Positions 46,887-62,113 of a stretch of 64,000 nucleotides of DNA are shown here, one piece after another. The notes under the pieces were generated by a model. The model was not told where the DNA came from. It ran no database searches and saw only the letters and a list, made by a program, of their open reading frames with translations. Positions within the stretch are counted from its first letter, which is position 1, and the number at the start of each line of letters is the position of its first letter. The position numbers were made by a program, and so were the translations under genes. Location: NCBI GenBank assembly GCA_017465475.1, contig JAFTWC010000050.1:26548-90547 (forward strand), read 5' to 3'. This stretch comes from Lachnospiraceae bacterium. GTDB lineage: Bacteria; Bacillota; Clostridia; Lachnospirales; Lachnospiraceae.

Positions 46887-46929
46887 AGAACCAAGATAAG
46901 AGAAACCCTATCTTGGTTCTGTTTCTTTT
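46887..46929 (+). terminator. Terminator after the 252-residue protein gene
   Basis: AGAACCAAGATA at 46887-46898 pairs perfectly with TATCTTGGTTCT at 46909-46920, followed by GTTTCTTTT. As at 14433, the hairpin starts one or two bases after the promoter-like element. Confidence 0.8.
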
Positions 46930-46946
46930 GAAAGGAGAGATGAGCT

Positions 46947-47060
46947 ATGGAAGTGAGAAATGTGATGGATCATTATGAGATTTATATGGATGGGAAGTTT
47001 GTGTGCTCCTGCGATGCAAATGAATTAGAGGAAGTTGTGGAAGAACTGGAAGTAAGATAA
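46947..47060 (+). CDS. Small acidic protein, 37 residues
   Basis: ATG 46947 follows AAAGGAGAGATGAGCT. The product is MEVRNVMDHYEIYMDGKFV then CSCDANELEEVVEELEVR. A beta-type start (DHYEIYMDGKFVCSCD) leads into a short acidic helix. The coding pattern, strong ribosome binding site and place right after promoter-like element copy 2 support a real gene. No family known. Confidence 0.6.
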   Translation: MEVRNVMDHYEIYMDGKFVCSCDANELEEVVEELEVR

Positions 47061-47123
47061 GAGTGTCAGGGGAAGCAGGAAGCGGACGGACAATTACTGT
47101 GTTTGAAACGGAGGTTGGATTGT

Positions 47124-47807
47124 ATGCAGATGAAGTATCCTGTTGTTACATTATGTGGCAGTACCAGATTTAAAGATGAGTTTATGGAAGCACAAAAGCG
47201 TTTAACGTTGAGTGGATTTGTTGTCATTTCTGTCGGTTTGTTCGGACATTCAGGGGATGCAGAAGTTTGGGAAGGCAAAGACGAGAATGCGGTAACGCAG
47301 ACGAAACAGATGTTAGATGATATGCATAAGGCAAAAATTGATATGGCAGACGAGATTTTTTTGGTAAATCCGGATGGCTATATCGGAAGCAGTACGTGGT
47401 CGGAAATTTGTTATGCGAGAATGACAGGAAAGGCGATTAAATCATTGGAACCGATTCCGGAACGGGACGTTAATGATATGGTTTTTAAGCATATGGAAAC
47501 TGCAAAGAAATTGGCATTTCAGCAGATTGATGCCTGGTGGCATTTTTGTGGAGGGCCGGAGTTACAAGAAGCTTATTTGAGGAATATGGTTGTGTTAGAA
47601 CATAAAGGGCAGATGATATTAGATCCGTGGATGCCGGATGAAGATGCAGATTCAAAGCAGAACGTTACACATGGATTTGATCCCTTTACGGTATACGGAA
47701 AGAAAAAGATGGCTCGTTTTATCGAAGAACTTGTTCAAAAGGGACAGGAAATAGAGGAAAAAAGTTGGATATGGTCGGAGTTTGAGCCGGTACAAGAGAG
47801 CCGGTAG
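47124..47807 (+). CDS. Nucleoside 2-deoxyribosyltransferase-like protein (DUF4406 type)
   Basis: The 227-residue protein begins VVTLCGSTRFKDEF and has GFVVISVGLFGHSGDAE, ADEIFLVNPDGYIGSSTWSEICYARMTGK, the fold of nucleoside 2-deoxyribosyltransferase and DUF4406 proteins, with a possible catalytic Glu in SEICYA. The C-terminal 80 residues (AWWHFCGGPELQEAY) are an extension I do not recognise. Such proteins cleave or bind nucleotide N-glycosidic bonds. The ATG at 47124 has GGAGG 8 nt upstream. Confidence 0.8.
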   Translation: MQMKYPVVTLCGSTRFKDEFMEAQKRLTLSGFVVISVGLFGHSGDAEVWEGKDENAVTQTKQMLDDMHKAKIDMADEIFLVNPDGYIGSSTWSEICYARMTGKAIKSLEPIPERDVNDMVFKHMETAKKLAFQQIDAWWHFCGGPELQEAYLRNMVVLEHKGQMILDPWMPDEDADSKQNVTHGFDPFTVYGKKKMARFIEELVQKGQEIEEKSWIWSEFEPVQESR

Positions 47808-47818
47808 GAGGAAATGTG

Positions 47819-48502
47819 ATGGCAGGTAAGAAAGGGAAAGAAAAGCCAAGAGTAGTAGATATTGAATTATCTTGCTTGAAAGAAATGTTGAGAAAAGCAG
47901 AAGGTGATGAAGACGGTATAATCTATCAGGTGGGTGATACTGAAAAACAATATCGTTATGTTTTATGGGAAAAAGGAAACAATCCGCTCATTTGCATCGG
48001 AGCAAATCCCAGTGAGGCAGGAAGGGACGAGAATCATCCGACAGATCCTACGATTACAAGAATTCGTAATCTTGTGAAAAGGATAAATGAAACCGAAGGA
48101 GATGAATTCGATGGTTGGATTATGTTGAATTTGTATCCGCAAAGAACGCCAAAGCCGAAAGCGTTACATAAAGAAGAAACGTATGATAAAGAAGTGATGA
48201 AAAAGAATCATGAAATTATTCAAATAATGTTTGATGAATTTAAAAAAGCAAAAACGCTGTTGGCATGGGGAAATATAATTGATTTAGAGGAAAGAGAATA
48301 TTTGAAAGAGAGTTTTAAAAAGATAGTCTCCATAGGTGGACAACGAAAATGGTGTATACGAGGGGAAATGACCCTAAAGAATAATCCGAGGCATCAGTTA
48401 TATGTAAAAGGTGGAACAAAAATGGAACCGGTAAGAATTGACGAAGGAGGGAAAATATGCAAAATCGGTATGCAGGAGATGTCGGAGATTTTGGGAAAAT
48501 AG
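47819..48502 (+). CDS. DUF1643 domain protein
   Basis: The 227-residue protein has the DUF1643 core: YRYVLWEKGNNPLICIGANPSEAGRDENHPTDPTI, GWIMLNLYPQRTPKPKAL, and LLAWGNIIDLEEREYLK. NPSxA with a later Trp-Gly motif is typical. The family is found in phages and genome islands; its biochemical role is not established. AGGAGG at 47806-47811 sets the ATG at 47819. The next gene starts within its last 46 nt. Confidence 0.85.
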   Translation: MAGKKGKEKPRVVDIELSCLKEMLRKAEGDEDGIIYQVGDTEKQYRYVLWEKGNNPLICIGANPSEAGRDENHPTDPTITRIRNLVKRINETEGDEFDGWIMLNLYPQRTPKPKALHKEETYDKEVMKKNHEIIQIMFDEFKKAKTLLAWGNIIDLEEREYLKESFKKIVSIGGQRKWCIRGEMTLKNNPRHQLYVKGGTKMEPVRIDEGGKICKIGMQEMSEILGK

Positions 48503-49179
48503 GATTATTGAGAGCATTGGAGCAGGAAGGACTCCGAGTGGGCGTTAATTGGTATTTGGTTGGAGATGAGAGTCATAATAATGATGGAAAACACGTTGGG
48601 TATTTGAATGATAAACAATACGTAGACTGTGACAATGAGCTTCTGTATTTGCTTAGTGAGATGGTATTGCAAAAGAAAAGATCGGTGGAACAGTTGGAAT
48701 GTTTGAATGCGTTACAAACGCAAAGGTATTATCATAGAGTGATTCCTTTGCCAAATGATATCAAAGGCAAGGCGAGAAGAGAATGGCATAAGAATGCGGT
48801 AGAAGCTATGCGTGGATGTGATTTGGTTTTTTTGGACCCGGATAATGGGCTGCTTCCGAAAAGTGTGGGTTTTGGAAGCGCGAAAAGTGTAAAATATGTT
48901 TTATCGGAAGAAATAATTGATTATTACAAGAACGGCTATAGCGTGGTGTTTTATAGTCATCGTACGCGTGAACAGTTAGATGTGTATCTGGAAAGGTTTA
49001 TGAATTTGTTCTGTACGAAAGAATTAGAAGAAGCAACGATAAAGGGAATATCGTTTAAGAGGGGAACAATAAGAGATTATTTCTTTCTGATCCATAAAGA
49101 GCATGAAGAAAAGTGCATTTCTTGTTTGGAATCGTTTGTAAAAGGGAAGTGGGGACAACATTTTAGTATGATACTTTAA
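48457..49179 (+). CDS. Conserved protein of unknown function with FLDPDNG motif
   Basis: A 240-residue protein opening MQNRYAGDVGDFGKIGLLRAL, then VGVNWYLVGDESHNNDGKHV and, near residue 125, CDLVFLDPDNGLLPKSVGFG. The acidic DPDNG motif, which follows a strand, recalls a nucleotide or metal site such as methyltransferase motif IV (DPPY/DPPF), but there is no clear glycine-rich SAM motif. The gene overlaps DUF1643 by 46 nt and is preceded by GAAGGAGGG, so both are made together. I do not know its function. Locally A/T-rich codon use suggests transfer. Confidence 0.75.
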   Translation: MQNRYAGDVGDFGKIGLLRALEQEGLRVGVNWYLVGDESHNNDGKHVGYLNDKQYVDCDNELLYLLSEMVLQKKRSVEQLECLNALQTQRYYHRVIPLPNDIKGKARREWHKNAVEAMRGCDLVFLDPDNGLLPKSVGFGSAKSVKYVLSEEIIDYYKNGYSVVFYSHRTREQLDVYLERFMNLFCTKELEEATIKGISFKRGTIRDYFFLIHKEHEEKCISCLESFVKGKWGQHFSMIL

Positions 49180-49198
49180 AATAAAAAGGAGGTGTACC

Positions 49199-50320
49199 AT
49201 GCCTTTTAAAATTGTAAGGAATGACATTACGAAGATGCAAGTGGATGCCATAGTCAATACCGCCAATGCGCAACCGGTGTATTCTTCCGGTACGGATACG
49301 GCAGTGTACCGGGCAGCGGGGGAAGAGGAACTGCTTGCGGAAAGAAAAAAGATTGGAGTATTAAAAGAGGGAGACGTGGCCCTGACACCGGGCTTTGCTC
49401 TTCCGGCAAAGTATATTCTTCATGCAGTGAGTCCCAAGTATCGAGGTGGTTTATTCAGTGAGGAAAAGAAGCTTCGGGCCTGTTATAAAAAGAGTTTGGA
49501 ATTGGCGTATGAGAAGCAGTGCGAGAGTATTGCCTTTCCGCTGATTGCCACCGGTGGGTTTGGTTATCCGAAGGAAGAGGGGATTCGGATTGCGATAGAC
49601 GAGATAAACGGATTTTTGCTGTCCCATGAAATGCTTGTATATCTGGTGGTGTTTGATGAGGCATCTACAGAGCTGGGGAGAAAGCTTGCTCCGGATCTTA
49701 AGTCGTACATAGATCGGAACTATGTAGAAGAGAAGCAGGAGGAAGAGTACAGCGAAGCCTGTGTAAGAGTGCCTACAGAGGCAGAGGAAACGGTTTGCAT
49801 AAGAGCGCCGCATTTTCTAAGTGAGAGAAGGGCGTCCGCTGATGACTCTGAGGAGTTTGAGGAACAGGTGGTATATAGCCGGTGCGCCGCTCCAAGCAGA
49901 AACACGAAAAAAGCGGAGAGTTCCTATGATGACTTTGTGGAAGAAAGCCAAGCGGCAATAAAAGAGCGTTTAAAGCACCGGGCGGATACGTTCCAGCAGT
50001 ACCTGTTTTATCTGATAAAGATAAAAGGATTGTCTAACGCGGAAGTGTATAGGCGGGCGATTGTTACGAAGCAGTTGTTTTCCAAAATAAAGATGAACCC
50101 GGACTATCACCCGGATAAAGCCACTGCTATGCGGCTTTGTGTAGGGGTGGGACTGAGTCTGGATGAAACAAAGGATTTACTGGCGCGGGCAGGATACGCT
50201 TTGTCGCCCAGTGACATGCGGGATATTATCTTTTCCTTTTTCATTGAGCAGGAAGTATTTGATATGATAGAAATCGATATTGCACTGGAAGAGTATGGAT
50301 TGCCGTGTTTTATTGAGTAA
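49199..50320 (+). CDS. Macro-domain protein with C-terminal helical (HTH-like) domain
   Basis: A 373-residue protein. The N-terminal 175 residues form a macro domain: IVRNDITKMQVDAIVNTANAQPVY, GTDTAVYRAAG, YILHAVSPKYRGG and IAFPLIATGGFGYPKEEG. The usual glycine-rich loop (GGGVDGAI) is changed to YSSGTDTAV, as in a Clostridia subgroup. Residues 175-255 are an acidic linker. The C-terminal 115 residues (FQQYLFYLIKIKGLSNAEVYRR and LDETKDLLARAGYALSPSDMRD) form an HTH-like helical domain. Macro domains bind or hydrolyse ADP-ribose derivatives. GGAGGTGTACC precedes the start; a terminator follows, then a VWA gene. Confidence 0.9.
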   Translation: MPFKIVRNDITKMQVDAIVNTANAQPVYSSGTDTAVYRAAGEEELLAERKKIGVLKEGDVALTPGFALPAKYILHAVSPKYRGGLFSEEKKLRACYKKSLELAYEKQCESIAFPLIATGGFGYPKEEGIRIAIDEINGFLLSHEMLVYLVVFDEASTELGRKLAPDLKSYIDRNYVEEKQEEEYSEACVRVPTEAEETVCIRAPHFLSERRASADDSEEFEEQVVYSRCAAPSRNTKKAESSYDDFVEESQAAIKERLKHRADTFQQYLFYLIKIKGLSNAEVYRRAIVTKQLFSKIKMNPDYHPDKATAMRLCVGVGLSLDETKDLLARAGYALSPSDMRDIIFSFFIEQEVFDMIEIDIALEEYGLPCFIE

Positions 50321-50325
50321 GTCAG

Positions 50326-50354
50326 GGTCGCCCTCACGGCGACCTCTCTTTTTT
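50326..50354 (+). terminator. Terminator of the macro-domain gene
   Basis: GGTCGCC at 50326-50332 and GGCGACC at 50338-50344 form a perfect 7-bp stem around CTCAC, followed by TCTCTTTTTTC. Confidence 0.8.
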
Positions 50355-50361
50355 CTCTTTA

Positions 50362-50370
50362 TGATATAGT
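50362..50370 (+). promoter_or_regulatory. Extended -10 promoter of the VWA gene
   Basis: TGA followed by TATAGT at 50365-50370. The sequence CTCAGAACCAAGA downstream also follows the -10 at 46880, 13 identical bases at both places. Confidence 0.4.
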
Positions 50371-50426
50371 TACCTCAGAACCAAGAAAACACAAAAAAGT
50401 TTATGAAAGAAAACGGAGGTACTATT

Positions 50427-51095
50427 ATGAGAAAAGGATTGACAGAAATCGTATTTATTTTGGACCGAAGCGGGTCCATGAGCGGTCTGGAGGCGGACAC
50501 CATCGGCGGCTACAACTCCTTGATGGAAAAGCAGAAGAAAGAAGAAGGGGAGGCTATCGTATCCACGGTGTTGTTTGATGATCAGACAGAGGTGTTGTAT
50601 GACCGGGTGGAACTTAAGAAGGTGCCGACCATGACCGAAAAGGAATACTTTGTGCGAGGCAGCACAGCGCTCCTTGATGCTCTGGGTGGGGCCATTCATC
50701 ACATCGGAAACGTACATAAGTATGCCAGAGAAGAGGACCGGCCGGAAAAGACGTTATTTATTATTACAACCGACGGAGAGGAAAACTCCAGCTGCACTTA
50801 CACCTACGATAAGGTGAAAAAGATGGTGGAGCGGCAGAAAAAAAAGTACGGTTGGGAGTTTTTATTCCTTGGCGCCAACATGGATGCTGTGGCAGAAGCA
50901 GCCAGATTCGGGATTGCATCGGAGCGGGCGGTGCGGTATCAGTGTGACCGTGAAGGAACTGAGGTGAACTACACGGTTCTTAGTAAGGCAATCAGTAAGG
51001 TTCGTAGTTGCGCCGCGGATGAAATGGAGCTTGCTTTGGCACCGGGCTGGAAGGAAGAGATTGAGGCGGATTATAAGAGGAGGGGGAAACGGTAA
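50427..51095 (+). CDS. VWA domain protein
   Basis: A 222-residue von Willebrand factor A domain with a complete MIDAS metal site: DRSGSMS (Asp13, Ser15, Ser17), Thr in RGSTALLDALG, and Asp in TTDGEENSS. A short C-terminal tail has RVQ-like charge. No signal peptide, so it acts in the cytoplasm, probably as a Mg-dependent binding partner. The ATG at 50427 follows AACGGAGGTAC. It is next to the macro-domain gene, a recurring pair in Firmicutes as far as I recall; the joint function is unknown. Confidence 0.9.
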   Translation: MRKGLTEIVFILDRSGSMSGLEADTIGGYNSLMEKQKKEEGEAIVSTVLFDDQTEVLYDRVELKKVPTMTEKEYFVRGSTALLDALGGAIHHIGNVHKYAREEDRPEKTLFIITTDGEENSSCTYTYDKVKKMVERQKKKYGWEFLFLGANMDAVAEAARFGIASERAVRYQCDREGTEVNYTVLSKAISKVRSCAADEMELALAPGWKEEIEADYKRRGKR

Positions 51096-51273: not shown

Positions 51274-51624
51274 ATGGGGAATCAAGCTAGCGTGGCAGAT
51301 ATTACAGCATTCCTCGAAAGAGCGAAAAGACTTATATCTGCGGGGAAATATGATTTTGTTCCAAGAAGAAAGAATATGCAGGCATTGGCTCAGTACGGAA
51401 TGACAATTGCGGATGCCAAAGATGAGCTTTTGGGGCTTGTTGTGGGCGATTACTATAAGGGACCTAAGCGGGATTTTGATCAGAGCAAACCCGGAGATAT
51501 ATGGGAGTTCAAAAAGAATGTGGATGGAATTCGAAATCCGTTTTATGTAAAAGTTAAGATTGTACAAGAGAACGGGCAAGATATTTTGAAATGTATTGGA
51601 TTCCATGACGATGACTATGCTTAG
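51274..51624 (+). CDS. MqsR-like toxin candidate
   Basis: The 116-residue protein compares by eye with MqsR: an ITAFLERAKRLISAGKYDFVP helix, MTIADAKDELLGLVVGDYYKG (MqsR: GMCNVIIGLSESDFYKS), IWEFKKNVDG (MqsR: TIWQDVY) and YVKVKIVQENGQDILKCIGFH (MqsR: YLKITVIHDVLIVSFKE). MqsR is a GCU-cleaving ribonuclease in E. coli. Catalytic residues are not confirmed. GGGAGGTAATCAG precedes the ATG. The antitoxin gene is 20 nt downstream, in the toxin-first order usual for mqsRA. Confidence 0.7.
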   Translation: MGNQASVADITAFLERAKRLISAGKYDFVPRRKNMQALAQYGMTIADAKDELLGLVVGDYYKGPKRDFDQSKPGDIWEFKKNVDGIRNPFYVKVKIVQENGQDILKCIGFHDDDYA

Positions 51625-51643
51625 GCTATAGGAGGTGGCATCA

Positions 51644-52648
51644 ATGAAAAGATATTGCGAAGAATGTGACAGAGAGGTAGAAACAAAAGTAATTACAAGA
51701 AGGGAATCCTACAAGGTATGTGGAGAAGTAATCGAAGTCGATGCTCAGATTCTTATATGTGCAGAATGTGGAGAGGATTTTTTCTGCGAAGAATTGGATA
51801 ACGCCACTTTGGTTATTGCGTATAATGAATATCGTAGGAAGCATAAACTTTTGCTCCCGGAAGAAATCAAAAAGATAAGAGAACAGTATGGGTTGAGTCA
51901 GAGAAGTTTTGCCAAACTTTTAAACTGGGGCGATAAGACCATATACAGATATGAAAACGGTTCCATTCAGGATAAGGCGCACAATAGTCTTCTGTTGTTT
52001 TTACGTGACCCGGAAAATATGAAGACTTATCTTGTGGAAAATGAGATTTCACTGGATGCGAGACAAAGAGTAAAATTACTTGATGTGGTTGAGAAGCTTG
52101 AGCAAGATAGAGAGTATCGTATGAGCCGTAGATTTTTGGATTCGTTTTTTTCAAAGATTCCGTGTGAAGAAAATGGATTTAGAGCGTTTGATTATGAGAA
52201 ATTCTGCGCGATGGTATTGTTTTTTGCACACAAAAGCGGAGAGTTACTCAAGACAAAGTTGATGAAGTTATTGAATTATTCAGATATGGTTTTCTACAAA
52301 GAGAATGGCATATCCATATCGGGTGCAAAATATGCGCATTTGCCATATGGACCGGTTCCGGAGAATTTTGATATTCTCTTAGGGACAATGGCGGCGGATC
52401 ATATTGCACATATTGAGATTCTTTATGATAACGGCTATGAGAAGCATCATGTGATTCCTGATTGCGATATTCCGGAGGGGATTCTTTCTGAAGAAGAATG
52501 TGCAGTACTAGAACGTATTTATGAAAAGTTTGCGGAGTTCGGTTCTGTAGATATTTCCAATTATTCGCATAGAGAACGAGGATATAATTCAACAAAGCAG
52601 GGTGATATTATTTCTTATGCTTATGCGAAAGATATACAGTTGAATTGA
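51644..52648 (+). CDS. MqsA-type antitoxin with HTH and Panacea (SocA/DUF4065) domain
   Basis: A 334-residue protein. Cys5/Cys8 and Cys39/Cys42 (RYCEECDREV; LICAECGEDF) form an MqsA-like zinc domain. An Xre-type helix-turn-helix follows (IKKIREQYGLSQRSFAKLLNWGDKTIYRYENG). Residues 185-300 carry the Panacea/SocA pattern (LLNYSDMVFYKENGISISGAKYAHLPYGPVP). Panacea domains neutralise many unrelated toxins, so the fusion of an MqsA body with Panacea is notable. Start at 51644 after AGGAGGTGG. It would bind the upstream palindrome. Confidence 0.85.
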   Translation: MKRYCEECDREVETKVITRRESYKVCGEVIEVDAQILICAECGEDFFCEELDNATLVIAYNEYRRKHKLLLPEEIKKIREQYGLSQRSFAKLLNWGDKTIYRYENGSIQDKAHNSLLLFLRDPENMKTYLVENEISLDARQRVKLLDVVEKLEQDREYRMSRRFLDSFFSKIPCEENGFRAFDYEKFCAMVLFFAHKSGELLKTKLMKLLNYSDMVFYKENGISISGAKYAHLPYGPVPENFDILLGTMAADHIAHIEILYDNGYEKHHVIPDCDIPEGILSEEECAVLERIYEKFAEFGSVDISNYSHRERGYNSTKQGDIISYAYAKDIQLN

Positions 52649-57536: not shown

Positions 57537-57647
57537 GGAGAAGTGGTTGATGTGAGAATAACGATTAGAAACGGATGATATTTTGTCTGTTTGAGAGGAA
57601 GATTTCTAACATCGGCGCAAGAGAAAGGATTTGAGGAGGATTTTGAT

Positions 57648-61040: not shown

Positions 61041-61063
61041 TACCATGTGAACTGCGAAGAAAA

Positions 61064-61080
61064 GTCGCCGTAAAGGCGAC
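61064..61080. other. Small hairpin GTCGCC/GGCGAC
   Basis: A 6-bp perfect stem in the 100-nt gap between the 158-residue protein gene and the ADP-ribosylglycohydrolase gene. The same GTCGCC arms appear in the terminator at 50326, but here no T run follows. Confidence 0.35.
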
Positions 61081-61141
61081 CGGGGAATCTGTAAAACATG
61101 ATACAATAGACATTGCAGTATTAGGAAGGAGAGGAATAGCT

Positions 61142-62113
61142 ATGAGAAATAAATGGATTGACGGAATGATGGGCGTCGTGGTAGGGGATGCCCTTGGTAT
61201 GCCGGTACAGTTTGTGAGTCGGGAAGAACTTAGGCAAAATCCGGTAAAGACCATGGAAGGCTACGGAACTTATAATATGCCGCCGGGAACCTGGTCAGAT
61301 GACAGCAGCATGGCATTGGCAACTCTGGTGAGCATCAGGGAGAACAGAGGAATTGACTGCAATGACATTATGGAACGATTCGTTGCGTGGAACTTATACG
61401 GTGAGTATACCCCTGCGGGGAAGTCATTTGATCAAGGGAATACCTGTATGGAAGCTATTTGCAACTACATGTGGAAGCAGGATGCAACGACGTGCGGAAA
61501 AACCGGAGAATGGGCCAACGGAAACGGAGCCCTGATGAGAATTATGCCGGTGTGCCTGTATGCCTATGAAAAGATGAACTGCGGAGCGTGGACGGAAGAG
61601 GAAGCTATGGAACAGGTGCAGCAAGTGGCTGCGCTGACCCATAATCATCTTCGTTCCCATATTGCTTGTGTTATGTATTGCTATATGGTTCGGAGCATTT
61701 TGGATGAAACGGGGACGTTGCGGGAACGGTTGCAAAAAGGCGTGGACGATACGATGCGGTATTACCACAAGGATATATCAACCTATGTAGAACTGGCACA
61801 TTACGGACGGCTGTTTCATTTGGATGAATTTGCGACCTGCAAGGAAGAGAACATTAAAAGTACCGGGTATGTGGTGGATAGTTTAGAGGCCGCTGTGTGG
61901 AGTCTGCTTACGACAGAATCGCTGGAAGAGGCACTGCTTCGTGCGGTAAATCTGGGAGACGATACGGACACGGTGGGTGCCATTGCCGGTGGACTGGCGG
62001 CCCTGTATTACGGATATGAAAGTGCGCCGGAAGAGTGGCGGAGCCGGATTATTAAGCCGGAGCTGTTTGTGGCGGTTTGTGAAGAGATGGAGGGGTGTGC
62101 CGGAGGTGTTTAG
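61142..62113 (+). CDS. ADP-ribosylglycohydrolase family protein
   Basis: A 323-residue enzyme of the ARH/DraG family. Metal and substrate motifs are visible: GVVVGDALGMPVQF near the start, WSDDSSMALA near residue 57, AALTHNHLRS, and GDDTDTVGAIAGGLAALYYG near residue 275. These supply the two-Mg site that removes ADP-ribose from proteins or other targets. The ATG at 61142 follows GGAAGGAGAGG; an open frame from 61022 is not supported. It may pair functionally with the macro-domain protein at 49199, which also acts on ADP-ribose, but the two are 11 kb apart. Confidence 0.92.
   Translation: MRNKWIDGMMGVVVGDALGMPVQFVSREELRQNPVKTMEGYGTYNMPPGTWSDDSSMALATLVSIRENRGIDCNDIMERFVAWNLYGEYTPAGKSFDQGNTCMEAICNYMWKQDATTCGKTGEWANGNGALMRIMPVCLYAYEKMNCGAWTEEEAMEQVQQVAALTHNHLRSHIACVMYCYMVRSILDETGTLRERLQKGVDDTMRYYHKDISTYVELAHYGRLFHLDEFATCKEENIKSTGYVVDSLEAAVWSLLTTESLEEALLRAVNLGDDTDTVGAIAGGLAALYYGYESAPEEWRSRIIKPELFVAVCEEMEGCAGGV

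What the first reader, a model, noticed from the sequence alone, without database searches (positions are those of the whole stretch)
46947..51095. Accessory run combining nucleotide-glycosidic, DUF1643, DPDNG, macro and VWA proteins
Five genes in a row with no housekeeping function: a nucleoside-deoxyribosyltransferase-like protein, DUF1643, an unassigned protein overlapping it by 46 nt, a macro protein with a C-terminal HTH-like domain, and a VWA protein. Macro and nucleotide glycosidic folds act on ADP-ribose or nucleotides, and this kind of gene mix is found in conflict islands. Locally A/T-rich codon use in 47.8-49.2 kb and the toxin-antitoxin pair next door fit a mobile or defence island. 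A shared system is inference.
Basis: partly seen in the sequence, partly recalled or inferred. Interest (0 to 1): 0.7.

Follow-up and report, generated by a model that had tools for sequence, protein, structure and literature searches.

The report
Macro-domain regulator controlling ADP-ribose genes
The five-gene run is really two things: three hitch-hiking accessory genes, and beside them a gut-bacterial switch in which a predicted DNA-binding protein with an ADP-ribose-type (macro) domain appears to control a von Willebrand-type gene and an ADP-ribose-removing enzyme through one conserved DNA site.

Summary
The five genes are as described, but they are not one system. B, C and D (47124-49179) look inserted: they are absent from the same place in same-genus G005 and G001, and C shows no tie to the others elsewhere. 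D is a rare gene of restriction/defence loci; 4 of 21 D clusters (window included) sit beside a macro-HTH gene. E (macro plus XRE-like HTH) and F (VWA) are a real pair: next to each other, or one gene apart, in 15 of 16 genomes with F. Upstream of F lies a conserved dyad, GTCGC-N7-GCGACC, 20 nt before a TATAAT-like -10. In 1.84 Mb of fetched module loci this composite promoter (at most 1 mismatch) occurs 96 times: 89 before a VWA gene, 7 before an ADP-ribosylglycohydrolase (ARG), none elsewhere. In the window's own genome it occurs twice: before F, and 10.7 kb away before an ARG gene (61142-62113). Operator variants track E's recognition helix: TTGAC half-sites carry S-[RK]-Q in 9 of 9 loci, GCGAC-type in 1 of 90. 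Best reading: E is a one-component regulator, probably an activator, of VWA and ARG; the macro domain is the likely ADP-ribose sensor. Closest published kind: the predicted ARG-centred systems of PMC9503650.

The parts
46947..47060 (+). 37-aa ORF, conserved in same-genus G005 upstream of the HTH gene; marks the left edge of the B-C-D insertion
   Evidence: Translation; DNA match window 46946-47044 to L048 10104-10006; no Pfam match
47124..47807 (+). B: nucleotide-fold-like protein, N-terminal ~110 aa widespread, C-terminal half rarely matched; passenger
   Evidence: 8 of 61 relatives, own included; no meaningful Pfam/NCBIfam match; next to D in viral loci L262 and L263
47819..48502 (+). C: DUF1643 protein; passenger, no recurrent tie to the others found
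   Evidence: PF07799 E 2.7e-19; none of B, D, E, F in 11 fetched of 13 other DUF1643 places
48457..49179 (+). D: unassigned 'DPDNG' family, found at restriction/defence loci, occasional neighbour of macro-HTH
   Evidence: Alignment; 4 of 21 clusters next to macro-HTH, window included; McrC, GmrSD, RhuM and RT-like neighbours
49199..50320 (+). E: macro domain (about aa 1-163), variable linker, XRE-like HTH domain (about aa 241-373); predicted DNA-binding regulator
   Evidence: PF01661; hhalign of HTH alignment to an XRE profile prob 79.9, E 1.4e-5, five column shuffles 0.1-0.7
50326..50344 (+). Operator dyad GGTCGC-N7-GCGACC, predicted binding site of E upstream of F
50365..50370 (+). Predicted -10 (TATAGT) of F, 20 nt after the dyad; predicted start of transcription near 50377
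50427..51095 (+). F: VWA protein with intact MIDAS residues; predicted target of E
   Evidence: A1 alignment, D13/S15/S17/T80/D116 invariant in 13 of 13; phrog_7371 E 3.7e-56
61063..61081 (+). Second operator copy AGTCGC-N7-GCGACC in the same genome, with -10 TACAAT at 61102-61107
61142..62113 (+). ADP-ribosylglycohydrolase (ARG) gene, second predicted target of E
   Evidence: PF03747 E 3.8e-75; coordinates
51274..52648 (+). MqsR-like toxin and MqsA/Panacea antitoxin; separate insertion, not part of the regulon
   Evidence: absent at this place in G005; GC3 0.38/0.35

Best explanation
E is a one-component transcription regulator: its XRE-like HTH, as a homodimer, binds the 17-bp dyad GTCGC-N7-GCGAC centred near -42 of two promoters and most likely activates them. 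The targets are F (a MIDAS-type VWA protein) and an ADP-ribosylglycohydrolase gene, so the regulon is built around removal of ADP-ribose. The macro domain most likely senses ADP-ribose or a derivative (or ADP-ribosylated protein) and gates the switch. Plausible use: answering ADP-ribosylation inflicted by phage or toxin transferases, or internal ADP-ribose stress. Shown by sequence: the E-F pair, the operator, its spacing, its restriction to VWA and ARG genes in the loci scanned, and its covariation with E's recognition helix. Inferred: that E is the binder (strong), activation rather than repression (moderate), the ligand (weaker), the biological trigger (weak). B, C and D are inserted passengers.
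For: Pair: VWA in 16 of 61 genomes (own included), HTH gene directly adjacent in 13 and one gene apart in 2. Of 72 genome-collection loci with at least 1300 nt upstream, 59 have a same-strand macro-HTH within 4.5 kb. Operator: strict dyad upstream of VWA in 75 of 111 loci, with a -10 at constant distance. 96 composite sites with at most 1 mismatch in 1,844,220 bases: 89 VWA, 7 ARG, 0 other; reversed pattern 0. Two sites with at most 1 mismatch in the own genome, F and ARG. VWA loci with an HTH on the stretch: 87 of 102 have a site with at most 2 mismatches; without one, 9 of 71. The site stays with VWA in 27 of 31 loci where E and F lie more than 420 nt apart. Covariation: TTGAC operators carry S-[RK]-Q in 9 of 9, GCGAC-type in 1 of 90; at least 4 operator changes on a VWA tree. 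XRE-like fold.
Against: No experiment. Phylogeny-aware pairs are few (3 of 3 concordant, sign test p 0.25), and near-identical loci inflate the counts. Operator class was read from the best-matching segment: the nine TTGAC loci have 3-7 mismatches to the canonical pattern, and L103 (7) is at background level. The window's own E reads T-K-Q and L067 reads S-K-Q with a GCGAC operator, so the helix rule is not absolute. Nine VWA loci have the site with no HTH on the stretch. The dyad alone at 1 mismatch is no more frequent in the own genome than its reversed control (12 against 11); at 3 mismatches the composite is rarer than its control (32 against 84). Six clear HTH proteins lack the macro domain yet keep a site, G005 by in-frame loss, so ADP-ribose sensing is not indispensable. 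The macro active-site loop varies. No such site precedes E. The poor -35 partly follows from the site occupying that place; TG before the -10 in 29 of 93 could allow -35-independent promoters. No fold prediction was possible.
Confidence: 0.62

Rival explanations
1. The dyad is an intrinsic terminator or RNA hairpin of E's transcript, not an operator; E and F are merely neighbours.
For: The scan calls 50325-50345 terminator-like, 8 pairs then a T-rich tail; half-site covariation (L178, L090, L056 symmetric variants) would also keep an RNA stem.
Against: The site stays with VWA in 27 of 31 loci where E and F are more than 420 nt apart; it precedes ARG genes too; spacing to the -10 is constant while T tails are only weakly conserved; only 10 of 47 tight pairs pass my perfect-stem terminator test; variants track E's recognition helix.
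Confidence: 0.08
2. E represses rather than activates: it sits over the -35 region and leaves when ADP-ribose binds, as proposed for the Nudix/WYL regulators of ARG systems.
For: PMC9503650 calls the TFs of similar systems negative regulators; TG before the -10 in 29 of 93 could make promoters -35-independent.
Against: At the -35 place matches are poorer than at random positions (87 of 93 with at most 2 of 6, random 248 of 465), though the site itself fixes part of that stretch; the dyad centre lies near -42 of the predicted start, the place of a class II activator (recalled: lambda cI at PRM, CRP class II).
Confidence: 0.27
3. The five-gene run is one defence system.
For: D beside macro-HTH in 3 of 20 other clusters (L252, L264, L287), B beside D in 2 of 20; McrBC, GmrSD or type I R-M neighbours of D and of viral pair copies.
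Against: B in 8, C in 2, D in 4 of 61 relatives, beside the pair only in the window; B-C-D absent at the syntenic place in G005; composition differs from E and F; C unlinked in 11 regions.
Confidence: 0.05
4. E-F regulation is real but has nothing to do with ADP-ribose: the macro domain is a dispensable add-on and the true signal is something else, perhaps read through the VWA protein.
For: Macro lost in frame in G005 with HTH, site and VWA kept; variable macro active-site loops.
Against: ARG is the only other target found, next door in 12 of 64 loci and by its own operator in 7; the macro domain is fused in all 59 HTH genes counted within 4.5 kb upstream in the genome set.
Confidence: 0.3

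Closest known systems
ARG-centred ADP-ribose systems predicted in PMC9503650, section 3.8 (section read in full, other passages seen)
   Same: ARG gene, vWA gene, an HTH transcription factor with an ADP-ribose-type sensor, macro and restriction genes as occasional companions; WYL regulators lie near three viral copies here.
   Different: There the TF sensor is Nudix or WYL, macro is an accessory gene, the lineages named include actinobacteria, planctomycetes and proteobacteria, phosphatases are frequent, and that section describes no operator. Here a macro domain fused to an XRE-like HTH takes the sensor place, the hosts are Clostridia and relatives, and operator and regulon are visible.
NrtR-type Nudix transcription regulators (known here only through PMC9503650 passages)
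   Same: One-component regulator whose enzyme-derived domain reads ADP-ribose.
   Different: Different sensor fold (macro versus Nudix) and different targets.
DarT-DarG and other macro-containing toxin-antitoxin systems (recalled; search listing only)
   Same: Macro domain acting in ADP-ribose biology on mobile elements.
   Different: No ADP-ribosyltransferase was identified beside the pair among the neighbours annotated here (none was searched for with a transferase model); E carries a DNA-binding domain instead of being paired with a toxin.
MoxR-vWA and TerY-P systems (PMC7159879, PMC11090510, passages)
   Same: vWA protein as partner in conflict-type loci.
   Different: No MoxR ATPase, PP2C phosphatase or Ser/Thr kinase appears among the recurrent neighbour clusters printed for 80 loci (not searched for by model). 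The distant VWA of G035 does have a kinase-like neighbour and lacks both HTH and site.

Membership tests
ARG-centred ADP-ribose systems (PMC9503650) | ARG gene in the same neighbourhood or regulon | tested here: met
   Window ARG 61142-62113 under the same operator; ARG within 3 kb on the same strand in 12 of 64 loci
ARG-centred ADP-ribose systems (PMC9503650) | vWA chaperone-like gene | tested here: met
   F, MIDAS residues invariant in 13 of 13
ARG-centred ADP-ribose systems (PMC9503650) | TF with Nudix or WYL sensor (in over 42% of them) | tested here: not met
   E carries macro plus HTH, no Nudix or WYL match; WYL genes only downstream in L171, L174, L177
ARG-centred ADP-ribose systems (PMC9503650) | Coupled phosphatase (in over 55%) | tested here: inconclusive
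   No phosphatase cluster seen among the recurrent neighbours printed for 80 loci; an HD phosphohydrolase next to VWA in phage L149
XRE-like HTH DNA-binding proteins | Profile match to XRE HTH | tested here: met
   hhalign prob 79.9, E 1.4e-5; five column shuffles 0.1-0.7; PDB top hit SinR, E 0.12, not significant alone; a comparison with the single MqsA HTH sequence failed
XRE-like HTH DNA-binding proteins | Binds a short dyad operator | not testable with these tools
   Inferred from operator-helix covariation
Macro-domain ADP-ribose hydrolases | Macro family by sequence | tested here: met
   PF01661; PDB match 9w48 E 1.1e-28
Macro-domain ADP-ribose hydrolases | Loop GGGVD..H of active relatives (recalled as catalytic; aligned) | tested here: not met
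   Window reads SSGTD..Y; among 54 copies that my pattern could class the loop varies, GGGVD..H in 19
One defence system of five genes | Same gene set recurs elsewhere | tested here: not met

The most novel reading that the evidence does not exclude
A macro domain serves as the ligand sensor of a one-component transcription activator: ADP-ribose (or ADP-ribose-1''-phosphate, a cyclic form, or an ADP-ribosylated protein) binds E and turns on an ADP-ribosylglycohydrolase and a VWA chaperone-like protein from a -42 site, giving Clostridia and their phages an inducible defence against ADP-ribosylation.
Probability: 0.38. Interest if true: 0.85.

Novelty: new variant of a known kind. Interest (0 to 1): 0.72.

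Why it matters
Eight searches of the open PMC library about this pair or regulator (listings, with passages of a few papers) showed no description of a macro-HTH regulator or its operator; subscription papers are not held there. If right, this names a regulator, its DNA code and a regulon that link ADP-ribose chemistry to gene control in gut and rumen Clostridia. It turns 'macro-domain protein of unknown function' and 'VWA protein of unknown function' into a testable switch: binding site, two targets and a short list of ligands can be tried directly.

Tried and rejected
Rejected: one five-gene system. Rejected: the pair as a general defence-island gene; tblastn with McrBC, GmrSD and HsdM proteins hits 5 of 80 genome loci against 7 of 20 viral macro-HTH loci (L147, L149, L164, L166, L171, L177, L264; some of the query proteins come from those very loci). 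Rejected: D as an RlmJ-like methyltransferase; comparison with E. coli RlmJ gave prob 0.2, Pfam nothing meaningful for nine members, PDB nothing convincing. Rejected as unproven: AGAACCAAGA repeats near 46887 and 50377; the paired copy at 46887-46920 is unique in the genome and looks like a terminator. Gave little: PADLOC on the window genes (weak AbiN hit for D, E 0.0077; weak HTH hits for MqsA); viral scan for C; PF04378 in relatives.

Limits: the 80 genome loci are the best-scoring of at least 594, so they favour close relatives, and all loci were fetched because of the VWA, HTH or D gene, so 'no site elsewhere' holds for those neighbourhoods, not for whole genomes. Outside fetched stretches the operator was sought only in the window's own genome (dyad alone; composite) and in viral contigs with an exact pattern. 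Of the 11 viral hits, 3 stretches (L325, L329, L332; two of them near-copies) precede a VWA gene and 8 look like chance. Random-window controls include some windows that overlap true sites. The 96 sites are not all independent: a second, slightly smaller set of loci gave 93 distinct sequences. In one search, 100 of 113 loci had both genes and enough upstream sequence; L056 was left out of the table as a third operator type, and L126 and L103 were classed from background-level segments. Two of 13 other DUF1643 places were not fetched (G801:C15, G840:C70).
Full report
OBSERVATION. The genes exist at the stated places. One search gives the ORFs; one search names DUF1643, Macro and VWA (the last under its cut-off); the 46-nt overlap of C and D is real, with D's conserved N-terminus inside C. 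The first coordinate of the finding is a 37-aa ORF. B has no meaningful Pfam or NCBIfam match. F's family start is 50427. Third-position GC separates B, C, D and the MqsRA pair (0.33-0.41) from E and F (0.50, 0.59).

TWO UNITS. In 61 genomes (own included) F's family occurs in 16; an HTH gene of E's family is directly adjacent in 13 and one gene apart in 2 (G016, G019); in G012 and G038 the two genes are on opposite strands; the exception is G035, a distant VWA. B occurs in 8, C in 2 and D in 4 of the 61 (two of the D hits are short fragments), beside the pair only in the window. DNA of same-genus G005 is collinear with the window up to 47044, then resumes at 49924 (HTH, VWA), then at 57622. 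So B-C-D and the MqsRA-GH10 stretch are absent there. G001 has E and F beside the same backbone genes, also without B-C-D.

THE PAIR IS WIDESPREAD. Of 72 with at least 1300 nt upstream, 43 have a same-strand HTH within 420 nt and 59 within 4.5 kb, all 59 fused to a macro domain; 11 have none upstream on that strand, two of which (L079, L120) have macro-HTH on the other side. ARG is the most frequent recurrent neighbour (13 loci), same strand within 3 kb in 12 of 64 loci. Genes between E and F vary: ARG, D, DUF4268, nucleotidyltransferase and others.

D AND B. D is rare: 5 of 291 genomes of the class and 10 of 398 of the phylum, own included and with several fragments. Thirty-one D loci form 21 clusters; 4 (window, L252, L264, L287) lie next to a macro-HTH gene and 3 (window, L262, L263) next to B. 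Under a crude density model 3 of 20 outside the window would be unlikely by chance (5e-7 to 5e-4); viral contigs are not random DNA, so this is only a guide. D's other neighbours include McrBC, GmrSD, RhuM and an RT-like protein (PF00078, under cut-off). C has none of B, D, E or F in 11 fetched DUF1643 regions; one of them, L308, has weak ARG matches. PMC10581047 (one passage) reports DUF1643 in a staphylococcal cassette-type island.

E'S C-TERMINUS IS AN XRE-LIKE HTH. Against a small XRE profile built from fetched loci, the 65-row alignment scored probability 79.9 and E 1.4e-5; five column-shuffled copies scored 0.1-0.7, the VWA alignment 4.5 and the D alignment 0.6. A PDB sequence search had SinR on top at E 0.12, not significant alone, and a comparison with the single MqsA HTH sequence found nothing.

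THE OPERATOR. Intergenic k-mers between E and F led to GTCGC-N7-GCGACC. A relaxed form lies within 260 nt upstream of VWA in 88 of 130 loci; random windows of the same loci have it in 50 of 2600. The strict dyad is upstream of VWA in 75 of 111 module loci, and aligning on it shows a TATAAT-like -10 starting 20 nt after the dyad (T, A and T at 95-97%), with flanks otherwise less conserved. Composite sites with at most one mismatch number 96 in 1,844,220 bases: 89 upstream of VWA, 7 upstream of ARG (window, L055, L085, L126, L161, L163, L264), none elsewhere; the reversed pattern gives 0. In the 3.07-Mb own genome (88.8% complete) only two composite sites have at most one mismatch: before F and at 61064. 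The gene after the latter, 61142-62113, is an ADP-ribosylglycohydrolase, PF03747, E 3.8e-75. The dyad alone at one mismatch is at background there (12 hits, reversed control 11), and so is the composite at three (32, control 84): only the best two sites count.

WHY E IS THE LIKELY BINDER. VWA loci with an HTH on the stretch have a site with at most 2 mismatches in 87 of 102; VWA loci without one in 9 of 71; random windows in 19 of 1500. The site stays with VWA in 27 of 31 loci in which E and F are more than 420 nt apart. Half-sites change together: GTCAA/TTGAC in L178, GTCGT/ACGAC in L090, GTTTC/GAAAC in L056. Operators with a TTGAC half carry S-[RK]-Q at three recognition-helix positions in 9 of 9 loci; GCGAC-type operators carry it in 1 of 90 (L067), and L056 has R-K-S. 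The nine TTGAC segments have 3-7 mismatches to the canonical pattern; L103, with 7, is at background. The Fisher p of 6e-12 ignores relatedness. On a VWA tree the operator class changes at least 4 times and the signature 5; the 3 supported independent pairs all agree, sign test p 0.25.

DIRECTION. The dyad centre is about 42 nt before the likely start. Matches to a -35 at 16-18 nt are fewer than at random positions (87 of 93 promoters with at most 2 of 6, random 248 of 465), though the site fixes part of that stretch; TG precedes the -10 in 29 of 93. This is the geometry of a class II activator (recalled); repression stays possible.

THE MACRO DOMAIN. It is fused in most copies, but six clear HTH proteins lack it and keep an operator-like site: four with at most 1 mismatch, L060 with 2, L056 as a symmetric variant. 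In G005 the protein runs from the first 13 residues of the macro domain straight into the linker. The active-site loop differs among the 54 copies classed. Sensing ADP-ribose is therefore the best guess, not a result.

LITERATURE. PMC9503650, section 3.8 (read in full), predicts ARG-centred systems with Nudix- or WYL-HTH regulators, vWA proteins and occasional macro or restriction genes, acting against viral ADP-ribosylation. The present system matches that kind in ARG, vWA and HTH regulator, and differs in the macro sensor and in its hosts. PMC11090510, PMC7824862 and PMC7159879 were seen in passages. Eight searches on the pair or regulator and one on DUF1643 listed nothing on this regulator or operator; subscription papers are not in the library.

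Noticed in passing
window 46947-47060: A 37-aa ORF conserved in same-genus G005 directly upstream of the HTH gene; function unknown.
   Followed up: partly
L161:4664-6298 and L163:4108-6888: After macroHTH-ARG-VWA come an AAA_28 ATPase gene and a second macro gene (both loci), and in L163 a nucleoside 2-deoxyribosyltransferase: a larger nucleotide/ADP-ribose cluster on viral contigs.
   Followed up: partly
L085: A second VWA gene about 7.3 kb upstream of the first also carries the strict dyad.
   Followed up: no
L063:5004-9122: In same-genus G003 a D homologue follows a 1012-aa reverse-transcriptase-like protein (PF00078 under cut-off), possibly a defence RT.
   Followed up: partly
L168:9563-10396: A NADAR-domain gene (PF08719, E 1e-48) lies about 0.9 kb downstream of the VWA gene on a viral contig.
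   Followed up: no
L104, L167, L168, L070, L117, L093, L173, L178, L103: A distinct operator class, TTGAC half-sites, linked to S-[RK]-Q recognition helices: a natural specificity switch.
   Followed up: yes
phages collection: VWA relatives (39-40% identity among the actinophage rows listed) occur in 222 phage records, many from Streptomyces and Microbacterium phages; the HTH query matched only 3 phage records.
   Followed up: partly
L177:5758-6255: A 166-aa ORF with a YHFTS...IL motif directly upstream of macro-HTH; by eye it recalls ADP-ribosyltransferase-like proteins, but Pfam finds nothing at E 0.01.
   Followed up: partly
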